From Candidatus Nitrosopumilus sp. (lineage in GTDB: Archaea > Thermoproteota > Nitrososphaeria > Nitrososphaerales > Nitrosopumilaceae): DNA of 47,353 nt. A program made the translations under genes and the position numbers. A model generated the notes under the pieces. It did no database searches. It was not told the origin of the DNA and saw only the letters and a program-made list of their open reading frames with translations. How positions within the stretch are numbered: position 1 is the first letter of the stretch; each line of letters starts with the position of its first letter. The stretch covers positions 1 through 47,353 of the forward strand of contig JANQNM010000086.1 of the NCBI GenBank assembly GCA_028279625.1, written 5' to 3'. Shown in pieces: positions 18,475 through 32,083 of the stretch.

Positions 18475-18603
18475 TTACACCTCTAGTTGCAAGCCGCGAA
18501 CGAGTTTATTCTTGCATTCAAGTTCTAGTGGTTGCTGACAATCTTTACAATAGTCTTTTACGTCCAACTCAATTCCACATTTTCTGCATGAATCTAATCT
18601 CAT
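18475..18603 (-). CDS. Small zinc-ribbon protein
   Basis: A 42-residue ORF below the track limit: MRLDSCRKCGIELDVKDYCK, then DCQQPLELECKNKLVRG. It carries two Cys pairs (C-X2-C and C-X2-C) that would chelate one zinc, typical of the many mini zinc-ribbon proteins of thaumarchaea. It lies upstream of the HEPN gene on the same strand, separated by about 92 nt with no strong terminator. Function unknown; a DNA- or protein-binding adaptor is the usual guess. Confidence 0.55.
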   Translation of the reverse strand: MRLDSCRKCGIELDVKDYCKDCQQPLELECKNKLVRGLQLEV

Positions 18604-18623
18604 TGAAAAATGCCTCTAATGCA

Positions 18624-18684
18624 GCGAGAACATGTGGAAAAAAAGCCCACTGTTTCATACTGGTCTAGGGTAAGAAGTTCTCGC
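18624..18684. other. Inverted repeat that could fold as a structured RNA
   Basis: GCGAGAAC (18624-18631) and GTTCTCGC (18677-18684) are perfect complements 45 nt apart. The enclosed segment has short self-complementary pieces but no coding frame that I support. It precedes the stronger palindrome at 18714. Either a small RNA gene or paired protein sites would explain it; evidence is only the repeat itself. Confidence 0.35.
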
Positions 18685-18713
18685 ATACAGAATTATTGGA
18701 TTGAGTCACAATA

Positions 18714-18745
18714 TACCTTAGTCAGCTAATTAGCTGACTGGGGTA
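18714..18745. promoter_or_regulatory. 32-nt near-perfect palindrome
   Basis: AGTCAGCTAATTAGCTGACT (18720-18739) is a perfect 20-bp palindrome. As RNA it extends with two G-U pairs, then C-G, C-G, A-U and U-A, to a 32-nt hairpin with almost no loop. It lies about 50 nt upstream of the small membrane-protein gene at 18793. A dimeric regulator's operator is favoured over a terminator, because no T-run follows on either strand. Confidence 0.55.
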
Positions 18746-18792
18746 CATTCGAATTTACCATATCCTATCTGTTTCTACATCTAACTACTTTC

Positions 18793-18942
18793 ATGAAAAC
18801 ACAACATATCTCAAACTGGGATAAAATGGTTCATGCACCATTTAGAAAGGTTGTAAAATTCGACCTCATCTGCATGGCAATTGGTGCCATGATGGGAATT
18901 GGTGCAGGAGCTTATCTTGCTACTAGTGGAATCTTAGGCTAG
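18793..18942 (+). CDS. Small single-pass membrane protein
   Basis: A 49-residue ORF, MKTQHISNWDKMVHAPFRKV, then a hydrophobic glycine-rich helix (FDLICMAIGAMMGIGAGAYLA). It has a basic N-terminal part, so Nin-Cout topology is likely. The ORF track omits it because it is short. The ATG at 18793 is the only start in frame with a complete membrane helix. It converges on the 7-TM-like gene, 28 nt apart. Function unknown; small one-helix proteins often stabilise membrane complexes. Confidence 0.6.
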   Translation: MKTQHISNWDKMVHAPFRKVVKFDLICMAIGAMMGIGAGAYLATSGILG

Positions 18943-18970
18943 TAGCAGTCTTTCTTTTTTCATTTTCTAC

Positions 18971-19758: not shown

Positions 19759-20388
19759 TTACACCTGTATGGAGCTAAATGCATAGCTGTCTTTTAGAAA
19801 CTTTGTTTGAACATTTGCATTAATTGAAATGTTATCGTCGGCAATCTCAAAGACTGTTTTGTTAAATGTGGTAGCATATTCGTTTACTTTTCTTCCATCA
19901 GCAGCATGGGTAAAGCCAACCATGGTAAGTAATCCATCTGAAATTAACTCCTTTATTCTGTTATAGGTTGATGCCTTTGGTAGTTTTGATTTTGCAATAG
20001 CTTCAGGAATTGATTTTGATTCATGGAGCAATAAATCTAAAATGATTTTTTTTGCAGGATCACCATATGCCTCAAAGATAGTTTTTGCGACTCCAGGATC
20101 TTTTATTGTAATTATTGATTCATTTTTTGTGTTTTGCTCAACTGAGAGAACTTTTTTAAAAATTTTAGATTCAATGTTAGATGTGTGTTTTCCAAAAAAT
20201 TTACGCAATACCAAATCAAGTTTTGAAAAATCACCTACTGCCTCTAAAACAGAAATACCATACACGTCATGCACTTCTTTTTCGATTTTTCTAAATGTGG
20301 CTTTGCCTAAATCTTCTTCAAACGTAGATTGCACTCCTTTTGCTACAATCCTATCCAAAGAATTCATCAAATATTGTATTCCAGCCAT
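19759..20388 (-). CDS. Winged-helix transcription regulator
   Basis: A 209-residue protein. Residues about 110-175 form a winged HTH: EAYGDPAKKIILDLLLHESKSIPEAIAKSKLPKASTYNRIKELISDGLL, then VGFTHAADGRKVNEYATTF, with the recognition helix around ASTYNRIKEL. The N-terminal 100 residues (IVAKGVQSTFEEDLGKATFRK...) look like a dimerisation domain found in other thaumarchaeal regulators. It is leadered: an SD AAAGGAG at 20401-20407 precedes ATG 20388. The inverted repeat at 20421-20448 in its promoter is a likely autoregulatory operator. It is the first gene of an operon with the membrane protein. Confidence 0.75.
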   Translation of the reverse strand: MAGIQYLMNSLDRIVAKGVQSTFEEDLGKATFRKIEKEVHDVYGISVLEAVGDFSKLDLVLRKFFGKHTSNIESKIFKKVLSVEQNTKNESIITIKDPGVAKTIFEAYGDPAKKIILDLLLHESKSIPEAIAKSKLPKASTYNRIKELISDGLLTMVGFTHAADGRKVNEYATTFNKTVFEIADDNISINANVQTKFLKDSYAFSSIQV

Positions 20389-20731: not shown

Positions 20732-20841
20732 TCCATCAATCATTTTTTTCACAGTTTTGCAAATAATCCAAATCTTAAAAACCAAAGCTCGCTTTACACG
20801 ATTCGGTTTGCACACCAAATCCTGTTTAGCAAGTGTTGGTA

Positions 20842-25155: not shown

Positions 25156-25173
25156 ATCTAATTTGGATTAGAT
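25156..25173. promoter_or_regulatory. ATCTAAT-TTGG-ATTAGAT palindrome, site 1
   Basis: A perfect 7-bp inverted repeat with a 4-nt spacer, identical in its arms to sites at 27651 and 30181. Unlike those, it is not upstream of an annotated reverse-strand gene; it lies between convergent genes, 35 nt past the stop of the 25208 gene. It might serve an unannotated transcript. Confidence 0.55.
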
Positions 25174-25207
25174 TATTGGTTCGTATCCTCTGAGATTCAC
25201 ATTTTGT

Positions 25208-27604
25208 TTATGGAGAATATGGCATGTATTTCATTGAAGTTCCAAAAGTTTCTTCCCAGATAGTTGCTTGTTCATCAGTAATTGGATAATGATCATTGTG
25301 CGTATATTGAGATTCTTTTGCAAATGAGCCACATCCGCCTGGTATCCATGGAACTGGAGTTGCAAAAGGATCTAGTTGGAATGCTATATTATGATAATCT
25401 GAATGCCAAGGACCAGGTTTTAGATAACTTTCAGAACACCCATCATCTGGTGGAGATAACATAAATTGATAGGCTGGAAATACCAAATTTCCTATCTTAA
25501 TAGCACTAATTTCCCACTTGTAGTTTCCATCTGAATTAGATTCTGTAGTTGATTGTGGACTATGAGTTGCCTTGAACTTTGCAATCAAGTCATCTAGTGC
25601 AAGAAGAGCATCGTTCATGGTATCAAATTCATGTCGTTCATTGCCAACAATCAGAGTCACTATTCCAGAATTGTAATTCACATATGGTCCATTAACATAA
25701 ACATCGCCTGATTCTGTAAATCCGTCATCTTCAGGTTCAGTTGAAGTTTCAGGTTCTGTTTCATCATAAGTTGTTGAATAATTTTCTGATTCATGTTCAT
25801 CTCCACAAACAACACACAAACCATGTTCTCCAACCTCTAAACAAGTTTGGCAGGAATCAGCACTTGTTCCAATTTCAACTTCAGATTCAACAAATTCTTC
25901 TCCACAATTTACGCATAATCCATGAGGAGCTATTTCTCCTGAACATGAAGGACATTCAAGAATACTAGGACTACTAGGATCAGTACTAATCATTTTGTGG
26001 CCTTCAATGACATCAGGGTTTAAAATTTGGTCAAGCGTTCCTTTGGGATATTTTTGTAAAATAGTCATGATGTTTCCATTTGGCAATGTAATTCCCATAA
26101 AAAAGCCAGAAGAGCCATAAACCCAGGAAGAATCATCGTCATTTGAGGGAACTAGTGGGTCAACCAAGTTATCAGATGGATTTGCGTCTTCATTTACAAT
26201 TACAAAGAAACCCCCATCAAAGGATGTAGAAGACTCTGTAAAATCAGAATTTACTGGAGGAAGTTCAGGCTCACCACGTTCAAAATATTCTATAAAAATT
26301 TCTGCACCATCTTCATTTGATAGTGTATCAATAAAAAACAAAATCATTTGTCCTTCGGGGGTAGCCATTGAATGGATGGTATTTTTAGTTGGAACTGTAT
26401 TTGATGATGACTTTTTTTTAGAAAATGAATCAATTTTAAAATCAGAGTATTCTATTCCGTTAATTTTCTCAGACACAAAATTTTGGTCAGTTCTAGATAA
26501 TTTTTGAAATTCTGGAGATTCAGAAATGATAGATAGTAAAACATCTTGAAGGTCTTCATTTGCCTGTTTTTGAGCTTTTTGAGCGTCTTTATGTGCAGAT
26601 TTTAGTTCAGATTTAGTTTCAAATGTTTTATCCATTGAATCAATTTCTGATTGTTGCCTCTCTACTGATTTTTCCAAGTCTAAAACATTGAAACCAGATT
26701 TTATTGCAATTTTCTTTGCATTTTCTGAAAATATTGTTGTTGATTTTAGAATTTCAGTGGAACGGTGAGAATCTTCTTTTGCTTTTTTCTCAAGATTTCC
26801 AAGTTCAATCATTTCATTCATTGAATTTTGATCTTTGTTTTCTGAATAAGCATCTAGAGATTGTTCATAGGATTTTTTTATGCTTTCGTATTCCCCACTT
26901 TTAATTTTTTGAAGATATGTCATGGCAAGTTCATTAGATTTTGCTGATGGCATTAATTCAAGAGGAGCCCATGCATGTTCAATTCCAAACCATGTTGGAA
27001 TGCATTTTCCTTCAGTAGTACCATCTCGTTTTGCGCACACTTCTCCTTTGTCAGCATCACAGACATTATCATCTGCACATTCTGTTGCACCCCAGCGACT
27101 ATCAATACCAAATTCTTTTGAAGTTTTATCTACCAAACCAGATGCTCCAAATGCGTTTTCAAATTTTTCTTGTCTTTCAGAGACTTCTTTTTGGATTTTT
27201 TCTGAATTGATGATTCCTTTAGTCATTAAATGACCAATAGCATTAACAATTTCATCATCTGAAATGATTCCTTCACCCCAGAATCCAAACACATCTTTTT
27301 GATAACTAGGAATGGATGGTTCTCCTTTTGGTACATTTGAGACATCTTCAAGGTCTGAGGATTGCACAAACCTATCAAGAGGAATGATATCTTGAACCAT
27401 TAAAGATTCAAGAGCATTAATCATATCAGCATCAGTGATTAGACCATCTTTCCACCACTTTGCGTTAGTTTTGAACCAGTCAGGCATCACATTTTGCGAA
27501 ATTCCTGGATCATGTTCATTGTAATCTGTCCATTGAGCATGAGACATGGTAAAAGTCTGTGAAATTAAGATAATTACAAAAAAAACTACAAAAAGCGTTT
27601 TCAC
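25208..27604 (-). CDS. Large exported protein with DWFKTNAKWW repeat and two zinc ribbons
   Basis: A 798-residue secreted protein: signal peptide ending SHAQ, then WTDYNEHDPGIS, then DWFKTNAKWWKDGLITDADMINALESLMVQDII, a thaumarchaeal surface-protein repeat, with a second repeat after it (FGFWGEGIISDDEIVNAIGHLM). A central coiled coil follows (about residues 230-350). Two zinc-ribbon-like units (CPSC...CVNCG and CQTC...CVVCG, each around GLC) lie near residues 545-605, unusual outside the cell. GTG at 27604 sits within the palindrome CACAAATTTGTG. It is a paralogue of the gene at 27672 and follows it in the same orientation. Confidence 0.78.
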   Translation of the reverse strand: MKTLFVVFFVIILISQTFTMSHAQWTDYNEHDPGISQNVMPDWFKTNAKWWKDGLITDADMINALESLMVQDIIPLDRFVQSSDLEDVSNVPKGEPSIPSYQKDVFGFWGEGIISDDEIVNAIGHLMTKGIINSEKIQKEVSERQEKFENAFGASGLVDKTSKEFGIDSRWGATECADDNVCDADKGEVCAKRDGTTEGKCIPTWFGIEHAWAPLELMPSAKSNELAMTYLQKIKSGEYESIKKSYEQSLDAYSENKDQNSMNEMIELGNLEKKAKEDSHRSTEILKSTTIFSENAKKIAIKSGFNVLDLEKSVERQQSEIDSMDKTFETKSELKSAHKDAQKAQKQANEDLQDVLLSIISESPEFQKLSRTDQNFVSEKINGIEYSDFKIDSFSKKKSSSNTVPTKNTIHSMATPEGQMILFFIDTLSNEDGAEIFIEYFERGEPELPPVNSDFTESSTSFDGGFFVIVNEDANPSDNLVDPLVPSNDDDSSWVYGSSGFFMGITLPNGNIMTILQKYPKGTLDQILNPDVIEGHKMISTDPSSPSILECPSCSGEIAPHGLCVNCGEEFVESEVEIGTSADSCQTCLEVGEHGLCVVCGDEHESENYSTTYDETEPETSTEPEDDGFTESGDVYVNGPYVNYNSGIVTLIVGNERHEFDTMNDALLALDDLIAKFKATHSPQSTTESNSDGNYKWEISAIKIGNLVFPAYQFMLSPPDDGCSESYLKPGPWHSDYHNIAFQLDPFATPVPWIPGGCGSFAKESQYTHNDHYPITDEQATIWEETFGTSMKYMPYSP

Positions 27605-27668
27605 AAATTTGTGTTTGAAAAACTATACTTAAAGATGTTCAATGATTCTCATCTAATTTAGATTAGAT
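27602..27668 (-). promoter_or_regulatory. Promoter with ATCTAAT palindrome, site 2
   Basis: Reverse strand, 5' to 3': ATCTAAT-CTAA-ATTAGAT (27668-27651), then the box CTTTAAGTATAG (about 27622-27633), then CACAAATTTGTG (27613-27602), whose last three bases are the GTG start codon. The palindrome is 47 nt before the start, upstream of the TATA box, where archaeal activators bind. The same arrangement and spacing recur at 30132-30198. Confidence 0.65.
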
Positions 27669-27671
27669 GTA

Positions 27672-30134
27672 TTATGGAATTGAAAATTTGATAATAGAAT
27701 CTTCTATTGTGACATATTCATTAGTTTCATAGTCTAGATATGTCAAAGAATAGACATAGTCACCGTATCCTTCAGCCCAATATGTTACATCTACGTTGCC
27801 ATTTTCGTCTGCATGATAACTATTTCGAGTCCAAACATTATGATGATCTCCCATAATTTCGTCCCAATTGAAATCAACTACAACTTGCACCCAACCATCA
27901 AAATTTGCAAATTCCCTATCATCAGAGAGTTTCCAATGTAAAGTAACATCATGAGAGGTAGAATATGCTTGATTCACTGTAACTTGATGACTTTTTTCAA
28001 TTACACTAAAGGATGTGCTATCAGGAATTGATCCAACAATTTCATCATTGAGTGCTAGTGTGAAAAATTTAGAGGAATCCTCAGAAATGCTTGTCACTTG
28101 TGCAGTGAATTTGTCTCCAGGTTTGTAATGGTAGGCATATGCAGCAGCACTAATTTTACCATCAACAAATGAATCCCAATGGTATTCTTTTTTTCCATCA
28201 GGGAGAGTAATTGTCACTAATGCTGAATAGTTTGAAGAATAGTCCCCTTCTAAAACTTCAAGGGAGTGAGATACAGTTTCAACATCCCAATCAAATGTAA
28301 TCCACGAGAGGTCCTTCATGCCAGGAACTTCTTCATAGTATGACGATTTTGGATTTGTTGGTTTTAATTCGGGATTTGGAACCACGATTGAGAGTCCATT
28401 TGTTGTTGCAACATCAATGATTTCTGAAATATTCCATACCGTTTCATCGTATTCTATTTGTTTCAACATGAAAGTGTATGAATCCCCTATTATTGGATAA
28501 TTTACATCATTAATTGCAATGCCATTATTATCAGTCGTTATTATTTTTTCAAAGGGTGTTTCATTATTCTTTTGTACAGTTATTGTGATTTTTGCTCCAG
28601 AGAATCCCTGCCTAGTTTCAGCATCATATACTTCCCATTTGGTTTGAATTTTGTCGTTGGGTTTTGAGTAATCTCCAGATAAAATGAAAGTAGGTTGTGT
28701 TACACCTGTAGGTCTATCATCTTCTGAAAGAAAATCTTTGAATACATAATTTTCAGAATTTTCTATTGAAGGTTGTACTTCAGGTGGTTTTTCATCAGGT
28801 GGTTGTTCATCCACAATTCCTGAACAAGAAGGAATGTAAATTTCAATAGGTTCAGGATCATCCGAATAATAGTAACGAGAATCTAAAGATTTAGAAAATT
28901 TTCCAACATTTGTGTTGTCATAGAAAATGTATGTTTGACCATCAATGTCTTTCAAAGTGTAAGGAGGGTTCCAAATTTTTCCTTTTTCATCCATTATCGC
29001 TTCATAAAAAAAACTAAGTGATTTTATTTCAAATGTCCATAAACCAGATTTTGTAATTTTTTCTATTCCTGTCCTAAAAGAATAATCCCCTTCTTTGGAG
29101 AATGTACTTCCAGAATATTTTTCACCATTAGGAGAAATAACATAGTAAAACAAAAAGATGGCCTCATCTTTTATTGGTTGGTTATTCTCATCAGCTAGCG
29201 ACCAAAAAAAATCAACCTTTACCTCATCGTTTAACTCAAGGCATTTTTTGTTTGCCATTGCATTTTTTTGTACAACAAAGACTTCACATTCATATCCAGG
29301 TAATGTACATGATTCTAGTTCTTTGAAATCAGAAGATTGTAAGTGTCCCTTAACAAAATCATTTGATTCAGTTTTTTCTTCAAATGAAATAATTTCAGTG
29401 TTCATCAGAAATTCAATACCCATAACAAAATCTCGTTCTGAAATCTGTTCATTAACATACCATTTGGCATTATTTCGAATCCAGTCTGGAATGTCAATAT
29501 CATCATCAACTTGAATTTGAGTTCCAGTAGGATCCATCTCTACAGGAGTATCAACAACAATAAGATTCTCTTTGACTAGAAATCCTAAACCTGTCGCAAA
29601 TTCTTTGTCACTGATAATGTCATCAGACCACCATTCAATCACTTGCTTGAGGTGAGCTGGCAAGAGACGTTGAGTTGGTTCAAAAACAGGATATTTTTTT
29701 TCTGAATTAATTTTCTCAAAATCCTCCAACTTATTTTCTAAGTCATTCCATTTCTTTTCAAACTCTGCCTCTTTTTCCAACAAATCTGACTCTGATTTTT
29801 CTAACTTGGCCTTGTCATCATGAAGATCTTTTAGTTGTTCTTCTACATCCTCAATCTTGTCAGGAGAAACATTACTGTGTTTTAGATTGTCTAATACTTT
29901 GTTTAGTTCTGTGATTCTATCTAGAATTTCCTGATGTTTCTTCTCATATGACTGCCTTTCTTTCTCAATTCTTTCTCCTTTTTTCTCTAGTTCCTTTTTT
30001 TGCTCTAGGAGCATTTGGTGTTTTTTTGACACTCCAGGATCATGCTCATTATAGTCAGTCCATTGACCATAAGACATTGTAAAACTCTGAGAAAGCAAAA
30101 TTATTCCAAAAAATATCACAAGAAGTTTTTTCAC
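27672..30134 (-). CDS. Large exported protein with coiled coil and beta domains
   Basis: An 820-residue secreted paralogue of the preceding gene: signal peptide ending SYGQ and the same WTDYNEHDPGVS. A long coiled coil follows (about residues 40-150, KKELEKKGERIEKERQ and so on). Then come two membrane-proximal repeats (EWWSDDIISDKEFATGLGFLV and DWIRNNAKWYVNEQISERDFVMGIEFLM), and a series of Ig-like beta domains (for example WDSFVDGKISAAAYAYHYKPG) up to the C-terminus. The GTG start 30134 lies inside CACAAATTTGTG. Function is likely cell-surface or adhesion; that is inferred from composition. Confidence 0.78.
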   Translation of the reverse strand: MKKLLVIFFGIILLSQSFTMSYGQWTDYNEHDPGVSKKHQMLLEQKKELEKKGERIEKERQSYEKKHQEILDRITELNKVLDNLKHSNVSPDKIEDVEEQLKDLHDDKAKLEKSESDLLEKEAEFEKKWNDLENKLEDFEKINSEKKYPVFEPTQRLLPAHLKQVIEWWSDDIISDKEFATGLGFLVKENLIVVDTPVEMDPTGTQIQVDDDIDIPDWIRNNAKWYVNEQISERDFVMGIEFLMNTEIISFEEKTESNDFVKGHLQSSDFKELESCTLPGYECEVFVVQKNAMANKKCLELNDEVKVDFFWSLADENNQPIKDEAIFLFYYVISPNGEKYSGSTFSKEGDYSFRTGIEKITKSGLWTFEIKSLSFFYEAIMDEKGKIWNPPYTLKDIDGQTYIFYDNTNVGKFSKSLDSRYYYSDDPEPIEIYIPSCSGIVDEQPPDEKPPEVQPSIENSENYVFKDFLSEDDRPTGVTQPTFILSGDYSKPNDKIQTKWEVYDAETRQGFSGAKITITVQKNNETPFEKIITTDNNGIAINDVNYPIIGDSYTFMLKQIEYDETVWNISEIIDVATTNGLSIVVPNPELKPTNPKSSYYEEVPGMKDLSWITFDWDVETVSHSLEVLEGDYSSNYSALVTITLPDGKKEYHWDSFVDGKISAAAYAYHYKPGDKFTAQVTSISEDSSKFFTLALNDEIVGSIPDSTSFSVIEKSHQVTVNQAYSTSHDVTLHWKLSDDREFANFDGWVQVVVDFNWDEIMGDHHNVWTRNSYHADENGNVDVTYWAEGYGDYVYSLTYLDYETNEYVTIEDSIIKFSIP

Positions 30135-30198
30135 AAATTTGTGATTGAGGAACTTTACTTAAAGCTGATCTATAATTATCATCTAATTTTGATTAGAT
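30132..30198 (-). promoter_or_regulatory. Promoter with ATCTAAT palindrome, site 3
   Basis: Reverse strand: ATCTAAT-CAAA-ATTAGAT (30198-30181), TATA-like CTTTAAGTAAAG (about 30154-30165), and CACAAATTTGTG (30143-30132) containing the GTG start. The palindrome to start distance is 47 nt, the same as at site 2. The two promoters appear to be duplicated with their genes. A second overlapping palindrome (GATTAG-ATAA-CTAATC) extends the site upstream. Confidence 0.65.
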
Positions 30199-30205
30199 AA
30201 CTAAT

Positions 30206-31384
30206 CTAAAATGGAGTTCCTGTACCAGTACTCAAATCTACAATTATTTCGTTAAATCGTGGGTCACTACTCAAATCAGAACGTACTGTAACAGTTACAT
30301 CACCTGAAACTCCAAGAGGCACATTACCTGAAATCGTTGTTCCATCTGCACTTACAGAAATATTGTCAGCTGTGATTACATCAAAAAATACACTGTCTCC
30401 TGATTGGATTCGTCCACATGAATCTGTTATAGTAAATACATCTCCATGATTTAGTTCAGTAGGATCAATTGTTGGATCAGATTCGCATATTGGTGGTTCT
30501 GGACACGAAATAGCATTTCCTGAAACATTGTTGCTTGAATCATATCCAACACAATCTCCAGTCGTGCCTGAAATCTTTAGATTTCCATCAATATTGTTTC
30601 CAGTAATAGCAACATCTTGATTTTTCTTCAAGTCAACGTTTCCATTAATTTGGCTATCAGTAATTATTACAGAGTTACTCTTTTTTACACTAACATTTCC
30701 ATTGACAGAAGAATTCTCAAGGATTAGATTTCCACCTTTTTTGACATCAATATTACCATTGACATCACCGCCATTTTTCACAACAAGTGTTCCACCTTTT
30801 ACTTTGATGTTACCATTGATGAAAGCGCCATCAACTATTACAGTCTCATCAAATTTGATTGTAAGATTGTCATTGTAGTCATCTGTGATAACTATCGTAC
30901 TAGGATCAAATTGTAGAATTGTTTCAATTGGAGCAAAGGAAATTACTTGTTGACCGTTAGTTAGATGTTGTAATCCATAAACTACATTCCAATCAGAAGG
31001 ATTTCCAGATGTATCAAATCCTTCAACCACAGCATCTATTGAGAAAGATTCATTTGGAATGTCAAAGAAAACGGAATTTATTGTAATTGTATTAATGTAT
31101 GATGCAATTACAGGAGGATTTTCATTATTTCCATCAGATACTTCAACAGCCATGATATCTTGTGAGGCAGTTACAGGATTTTGAATACCAAGAATTACTG
31201 CCCAATTATCAGTTAGTGGTTCGAATCCCTCAAAAGTTACATCAACTGTTAGTTTGCCATTTTCTATGATATATTGTGAATCAGTCATGGTTGCTCCAGG
31301 TGGGATAAATTGTGCAAAAGCAGGAGTTGCAAATGTTCCTAAAATCAAAATACTTGCTAAAATTGGAACTGCTAGTTTTGACAC
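30206..31384 (-). CDS. Exported protein with beta-helix-like repeats
   Basis: A 392-residue secreted protein with signal peptide ending PAFAQ. The middle (about residues 180-280) is a run of about 20-residue repeats: INGNIKVKGG, VNGNIDVKKGG, VNGNVSVKKS, INGNVDLKKN, IDGNLKISG, each with an N-G-N turn, typical of a right-handed beta-helix or bactofilin-like solenoid. The C-terminal part is an Ig-like domain (DPTIDPTELNHGDVFTITDSC...). Start is GTG at 31384. Promoter site 4 is 61 nt upstream. It lies upstream of the two large paralogues and is probably under the same control. Confidence 0.75.
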   Translation of the reverse strand: MSKLAVPILASILILGTFATPAFAQFIPPGATMTDSQYIIENGKLTVDVTFEGFEPLTDNWAVILGIQNPVTASQDIMAVEVSDGNNENPPVIASYINTITINSVFFDIPNESFSIDAVVEGFDTSGNPSDWNVVYGLQHLTNGQQVISFAPIETILQFDPSTIVITDDYNDNLTIKFDETVIVDGAFINGNIKVKGGTLVVKNGGDVNGNIDVKKGGNLILENSSVNGNVSVKKSNSVIITDSQINGNVDLKKNQDVAITGNNIDGNLKISGTTGDCVGYDSSNNVSGNAISCPEPPICESDPTIDPTELNHGDVFTITDSCGRIQSGDSVFFDVITADNISVSADGTTISGNVPLGVSGDVTVTVRSDLSSDPRFNEIIVDLSTGTGTPF

Positions 31385-31444
31385 AATAAAAAATGAAAAT
31401 ATGATCGTCTTAAAGATATCCTTGTAATATTACAGATGTTACAT

Positions 31445-31461
31445 ATCTAATGTAGATTAGA
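31445..31461 (-). promoter_or_regulatory. ATCTAAT palindrome, site 4
   Basis: ATCTAAT-GTAG-ATTAGA, one base short of the full repeat (final T is A). It is located between divergent genes 31384 (reverse) and 31501 (forward), with a TATA-like TCTTTAAGA between it and the reverse start. It may control both directions. Confidence 0.55.
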
Positions 31462-31500
31462 AAAAGAAACATCCAAAGCACTGAAAAAAAATTCTAAAAC

Positions 31501-32064
31501 ATGAGCGAAGATCTTACCAAACTTCCATTTTATCTACCTAAACCAGAAGACGATAGAAGAGCAAATCATCTTTTGGGACGGCAAATGCCAAAGATAGTAC
31601 TCCCTTCAACAAAAACGAGTTTTTTAGATTTTTCAAAAATTGCAAAAAAATATGTGATTTTGTATTTTTTTCCGATGATGGGAATGCCAGGAAAGGAATT
31701 GCCATCAGGATGGAATGAAATTCCAGGTGCAAGAGGATGTACGCCTCAAAATATAACATTTAGTGAGAATAATGATTCTTTAAAAAAATTTAATGCAGTT
31801 TCAATTGGAGTGTCTTCTCAGTCAATATATGACTTGGAACAACTATCATCTATTAGGAAACTATCACAGGAGATAGTTTCTGATAACAAATTAGAATTTC
31901 AAAAAAATCTCAACATTCCAATCTTTGAAATTGAAGATAAAATTATGTACAAACGACTAACATTGATTGTCAAAGATTCAAAAATTATCAAAGTGTTTTA
32001 TCCGGTTTTTCCACCTGACAAACATATTTTTGAAATCTTAGAGTGGTTAAAGAAAAATGATTGA
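31501..32064 (+). CDS. Peroxiredoxin-like thioredoxin-fold protein
   Basis: A 187-residue AhpC/TSA-like protein. After a short head, LGRQMPKIVLPST and YVILYFFPMMGMPGKELPSGWNEIPGARGCTPQNI match the peroxiredoxin core, with the GCTPQ cysteine in the position seen in BCP-like peroxiredoxins where the usual PXXXTXXC differs. Then FNAVSIGVSSQSI and a thioredoxin-like tail. It would reduce peroxides or protect cytosolic thiols; the peroxidatic role of Cys81 is an inference. ATG 31501 is divergent from the exported-protein gene at 31384. Confidence 0.75.
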   Translation: MSEDLTKLPFYLPKPEDDRRANHLLGRQMPKIVLPSTKTSFLDFSKIAKKYVILYFFPMMGMPGKELPSGWNEIPGARGCTPQNITFSENNDSLKKFNAVSIGVSSQSIYDLEQLSSIRKLSQEIVSDNKLEFQKNLNIPIFEIEDKIMYKRLTLIVKDSKIIKVFYPVFPPDKHIFEILEWLKKND

Positions 32065-32083
32065 TTTGCACGCCAAATATTGG

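What the first reader, a model, noticed from the sequence alone, without database searches (positions are those of the whole stretch)
25156..31461. Shared ATCTAAT-N4-ATTAGAT operator for a cluster of exported proteins
The same 18-bp palindrome lies 47, 47 and 61 nt upstream of three consecutive exported-protein genes (27604, 30134, 31384), just upstream of TATA-like CTTTAAG boxes. One more copy (25156) is between convergent genes. This position fits an archaeal activator site. The set would be a small regulon of surface proteins.
Basis: partly seen in the sequence, partly recalled or inferred. Interest (0 to 1): 0.6.

Follow-up and report, generated by a model that had tools for sequence, protein, structure and literature searches.

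The report
Repeated palindrome before archaeal surface-protein genes
In one ammonia-oxidising archaeon, the same rare 18-base palindrome sits just upstream of the promoters of three neighbouring exported-protein genes and almost nowhere else, so it is probably the docking site of a small private gene switch; this is a plausible but ordinary and unproven regulatory site.

Summary
ATCTAAT-N4-ATTAGAT is exact at 25156, 27651 and 30181, with one arm mismatch at 31445. The genome (1.47 Mb, Nitrosopumilus-like) has one further exact copy (C101:21687) and no other one-mismatch copy, against about 0.08 exact copies expected. It is the only gapped palindrome with arms other than A/T runs that recurs three or more times in intergenic DNA. 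TATA boxes at -30/-31 match a sharp genome-wide peak, so three copies lie just upstream of real, probably leaderless, promoters. The arms show 0 changes in 28 positions against 19 in 98 neighbouring positions (p about 0.005).

Four things weaken the reading. Copies 27651/30181 lie in one duplicated block, as do 25156/C101, leaving about three independent occurrences. All four exact copies also lie 3-66 nt after the stop codon of a leftward gene. No other genome of 250 in the family shows the motif above chance. The regulator is unknown.

Best reading: a lineage-restricted operator for a dimeric regulator, probably an activator, serving only this cluster (confidence 0.55). Rivals: a duplicated repeat or a 3'-end hairpin. 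Not a wider regulon.

The parts
25156..25173 (.). Palindrome copy 1 (exact), between convergent genes, 34 nt after the stop of the leftward gene 25208-27604; shares 61 nt at 85% with C101:21652-21712
27651..27668 (.). Palindrome copy 2 (exact), -64..-47 of the start at 27604; 3 nt after the stop of the gene 27672-30134
30181..30198 (.). Palindrome copy 3 (exact), -64..-47 of the start at 30134; 7 nt after the stop of the gene 30206-31384
31445..31462 (.). Palindrome copy 4 (one arm mismatch), -78..-61 of the start at 31384, in the divergent gap to the redoxin gene at 31501
27628..27634 (-). TATA-like box CTTTAAG, -30..-24 of the start at 27604
   Evidence: genome-wide TTTAA peak 26-30 nt before starts
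30158..30164 (-). TATA-like box CTTTAAG, -30..-24 of the start at 30134
31409..31415 (-). TATA-like box CTTTAAG, -31..-25 of the start at 31384
25208..27604 (-). Exported protein, 798 aa, signal peptide; residues 132-218 match TGase_elicitor; a segment of it matches a large exported family of the genus
   Evidence: signal peptide read from the sequence
27672..30134 (-). Exported protein, 820 aa, signal peptide and coiled coil; no Pfam match
30206..31384 (-). Exported protein, 392 aa, signal peptide, sub-threshold bactofilin-like stretch; no relative in the genus sample
27492..27668 (-). Duplicated block, copy a: signal-peptide codons, promoter, palindrome
   Evidence: 80% identical to 30022-30198
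30022..30198 (-). Duplicated block, copy b

Best explanation
The palindrome is an operator: the binding site of an unidentified dimeric, probably winged-helix, transcription regulator whose half-sites are one helical turn apart (11 bp start to start). Bound 16 or 29 bp upstream of the TATA box it would help recruit the basal factors, so an activator is more likely than a repressor, and it would control just the three exported-protein genes of this strain-specific cluster. Operator, promoter and signal peptide of one gene were copied to make another. The copies at 25156 and on C101 have no gene to control and are most simply duplicated leftovers or spare binding sites. Shown: the sites, the promoters, the rarity in the genome, the conservation of the arms. 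Inferred: protein binding, activation, co-regulation.
For: Rare in the genome: 4 exact and 1 near-exact copies in 1.47 Mb, four of them in 6.3 kb; the only recurrent intergenic gapped palindrome whose arms are not A/T runs. Three copies precede TATA boxes placed at the genome-wide peak. Arms unchanged in both duplicated pairs (0 of 28) while neighbouring positions changed (19 of 98; p = 0.005). Identity of the arms rather than mere pairing is kept. Palindromic sites upstream of BRE/TATA go with activation in archaea (PMC4158304).
Against: About three independent occurrences, not five. Two exact copies have no downstream gene. Spacing to TATA differs by 13 bp between promoters, not a full helical turn. 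All exact copies are also just behind stop codons. No relative shows the motif and no regulator is known.
Confidence: 0.55

Rival explanations
1. Duplicated DNA without regulatory role: the palindrome is the best-kept core of a short repeat that spread with local duplications (promoter block 27492/30022, 61-nt block 25122/C101:21652), perhaps as an end used in recombination.
For: Both pairs of copies lie in longer similar blocks. The asymmetric centre TTNG is the same in all four exact copies, which common descent explains easily. C101 also carries a 459-bp segment 96% identical to window 18508-18966, ending 16 nt before the 61-nt block, so DNA has moved between these two places.
Against: Between the two pairs almost only the 20-bp palindrome is shared; the arms changed less than their flanks; the copies are few and three of them sit at promoters.
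Confidence: 0.25
2. A 3'-end element: an RNA hairpin that ends or protects the transcript of the leftward gene before it.
For: All four exact copies lie 3, 7, 34 and 66 nt downstream of the stop of a leftward gene, in one orientation. The predicted hairpin forms; z = -2.8 at 30181. The C101 copy directly follows a conserved 3' box TTGGCGTGCAAACCAA, and the 25156 copy follows a similar-looking ...AACCAAT.
Against: A hairpin needs pairing, not identity: no compensatory change in any copy, and the only arm change (31445) breaks a pair. The stem is weak and A/U-rich, no T-run follows, copy 31445 follows no gene, and the other regions fold little better than shuffles (z -1.0 to -1.35).
Confidence: 0.15

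Closest known systems
TGM operator TATCAC-N5-GTGATA of TrmBL1/Tgr (TrmB family, Thermococcales; PMC4158304)
   Different: Arm sequence and spacer (N4, not N5) differ; the cognate protein is unknown here; only one gene cluster is served
Ptr2 (Lrp family) upstream sites, Methanocaldococcus jannaschii (named in PMC4158304; details from general knowledge)
   Same: Activator sites upstream of TATA that act by recruiting TBP
   Different: Sequence not compared; no evidence that an Lrp-type protein binds here
REP-like dispersed palindromes of prokaryotes (general knowledge)
   Same: Recurrent palindromes in intergenic DNA, some between convergent genes
   Different: Only five copies, four of them in 6.3 kb; all exact copies keep the same arms

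Membership tests
Archaeal activator-type operator | Dyad-symmetric site upstream of BRE/TATA | tested here: met
   Three copies 16, 16 and 29 nt upstream of CTTTAAG boxes at -30/-31
Archaeal activator-type operator | Shared by independently evolved promoters of one regulon | tested here: inconclusive
   Two of the three promoters are one duplication; the third copy has a mismatch and other spacing
Archaeal activator-type operator | Site conserved in related genomes | tested here: not met
   250 family genomes at chance level; but the genes themselves are absent there, so this is a weak test
Archaeal activator-type operator | Cognate regulator binds and raises transcription | not testable with these tools
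   Needs gel shift and in-vitro transcription
TrmB-family operators (TACT-N3-AGTA; TATCAC-N5-GTGATA) | Consensus arm sequence and spacing | tested here: not met
   ATCTAAT-N4-ATTAGAT differs in arms and spacer from the motifs quoted in PMC4158304
Intrinsic terminator | G+C-rich stem followed by a T-run | tested here: not met
   One G-C pair in a 7-bp stem; no T-run follows on the minus strand
REP-like dispersed repeat | Many copies across the genome | tested here: not met
   Five copies at up to one mismatch

The most novel reading that the evidence does not exclude
The three exported genes form a cassette array: each gene is bounded by direct copies of the same palindrome (25156, 27651, 30181, 31445), which would be the crossover site of a recombinase that swaps or adds strain-specific surface-protein genes, with a spare site on another contig.
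Probability: 0.05. Interest if true: 0.75.

Novelty: new member of a known kind. Interest (0 to 1): 0.3.

Why it matters
If right, it gives a concrete 18-bp bait for catching a surface-protein regulator in an ammonia-oxidising archaeon, a group for which PMC4158304 states that its TrmB-type regulator is not characterised. The scope is small: one strain-specific gene cluster, with no sign of a genus-wide system.

Tried and rejected
Genus-wide regulon: rejected; 250 family genomes show the motif at chance level, and in an earlier set of 61 only 3 other genomes had a single copy each. Conservation at orthologues: the 392-aa protein has no match in 59 congeners and the 820-aa protein only partial ones; a scan of genome contigs with the 820-aa protein found none. 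Conservation at the C101/argS locus: relatives carry the argS 3' end but not the palindrome. Viral origin: four viral contigs hold the 17 specified bases once each, about what chance would give by my own rough estimate. Known RNA family: none at the sites. Degenerate extra sites: two-mismatch matches fall mostly in coding DNA, as in the reversed control. A nearby regulator as the cognate protein: a FilR1-like winged-helix gene lies about 0.6 kb from the C101 copy, and the gene at 19759-20388 looks helix-turn-helix-like by eye but has no Pfam match; proximity alone is not evidence.

Full report
CHECK OF THE OBSERVATION. The pattern ATCTAATNNNNATTAGAT occurs exactly at 25156, 27651 and 30181 and with one arm mismatch at 31445; none of 100 dinucleotide shuffles of the window gave four matches. 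The stated distances to the GTG starts (47, 47, 61) are correct. In the whole genome (1,467,361 bases; handle G000) there is only one more exact copy, C101:21687, and no other copy with one mismatch; matches with up to two mismatches number 36 against 23 for the reversed control. With 33% G+C I expect about 0.08 exact and 2.6 one-mismatch copies. I rebuilt the genome from stretches and listed all perfect palindromes with 7-nt arms and 2-8 nt gaps: ATCTAAT with gap 4 is the only one, other than arms made of A/T runs, that occurs three or more times in intergenic DNA. So the recurrence is real and rare.

INDEPENDENCE. The five copies are not five events. 27651 and 30181 lie at the edge of a 177-nt block, 80% identical, that carries palindrome, promoter and signal-peptide codons. 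25156 and C101:21687 share 61 nt at 85% identity. Between the two pairs little more than the palindrome and its centre (TCATCTAATTTNGATTAGAT) is shared. The near-copy at 31445 is a third unit. Within the two pairs the arms differ at 0 of 28 positions while all other aligned positions differ at 19 of 98 (one-sided Fisher p = 0.005). This points to selection on the exact sequence of the arms, although the numbers are small.

PROMOTER CONTEXT. Across 1,260 gene starts called by a simple coding-score method, TTTAA is sharply enriched 26-30 nt upstream of the start codon (104 hits in the bin against about 10-25 in most others), which suggests that many transcripts begin at or near the start codon. 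The three exported genes have CTTTAAG beginning at -30, -30 and -31. The palindromes end 16, 16 and 29 nt upstream of these boxes. In archaea, palindromic sites upstream of BRE/TATA go with activation and sites downstream with repression (PMC4158304); hence activator is the better guess. The 13-bp difference in spacing is not a full helical turn, a mild point against.

3'-END CONTEXT. Of intergenic bases 14% lie at -80..-40 of a start and 20% lie within 70 nt after a stop, so position alone does not decide. Against an RNA hairpin: no compensatory change, a weak A/U stem, no T-run, a copy (31445) that follows no gene, and ordinary folding energies except at 30181.

RELATIVES. The genes are accessory: the 392-aa protein has no match at E<=1e-20 in 59 other congeneric genomes, and the 820-aa protein has only partial matches in three. 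The 798-aa protein shares a segment with a large exported family (often 10-20 matches per genome), yet the closest N-terminal relatives in G034 and G002 lack the palindrome. In 250 genomes of the family no other genome has more than one exact copy of the motif. Downstream of argS the relatives keep a conserved 3' element but not the palindrome. The nearest named argS relatives are Nitrosopumilus metagenome-assembled genomes. So the site is restricted to this lineage.

MECHANISM. I commit to a lineage-restricted operator for a dimeric regulator, more likely an activator, acting on the three exported genes (0.55). The remaining copies are most simply duplicated leftovers. A duplicated repeat without function (0.25) and a 3'-end hairpin (0.15) remain open. 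A cassette model, in which the palindrome is a crossover site between strain-specific surface genes, fits the direct-repeat layout but has no comparative support (0.05).

COMPARISON. It works like known archaeal upstream operators (TrmBL1/Tgr TGM, Ptr2 sites) but cannot be filed under any named regulator: sequence and spacing differ from those quoted in PMC4158304, and the protein is unknown. It is a new member of a known kind and of modest interest.

Noticed in passing
C101:21707-21770 (L004:1521-1584), the 3' side of argS in loci L223-L275; window 32061-32076 and 20803-20818; C72:6017, C72:22474, C101:15626, C28:3290: A conserved 3' element: one or two hairpins followed by a nearly invariant box TTGGCGTGCAAACCAAT lies right after argS in many Nitrosopumilus and related genomes. 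The box has 7 intergenic copies at 0-2 mismatches in this genome, most near gene 3' ends, and no Rfam match. It may be an undescribed thaumarchaeal 3'-end element or small RNA.
   Followed up: partly
window 24482, 25112, 33281 and 35273: A second short repeat, TGAATCCNTAGAGGCTTGAACC, twice starting at a TGA stop codon, once upstream of the TATA-like box of the FMN reductase gene; similar stretches occur in congeners, including upstream of a related exported gene in G034 (L020).
   Followed up: partly
window 18508-18966 and C101:21177-21635: A 459-bp segment with a small membrane-protein gene is present twice at 96% identity; the C101 copy ends 16 nt before the palindrome-bearing 61-nt block.
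   Followed up: partly
window 27601-27614 and 30131-30144: A second perfect dyad, CACAAATTTGTG, spans the start codon of the two duplicated genes; one more copy in the genome at C16:20223.
   Followed up: no
C20:11450-11479: A 30-bp palindrome TATATAATGTAATATATATTACATTATATA lies 14 nt upstream of a called gene start.
   Followed up: no
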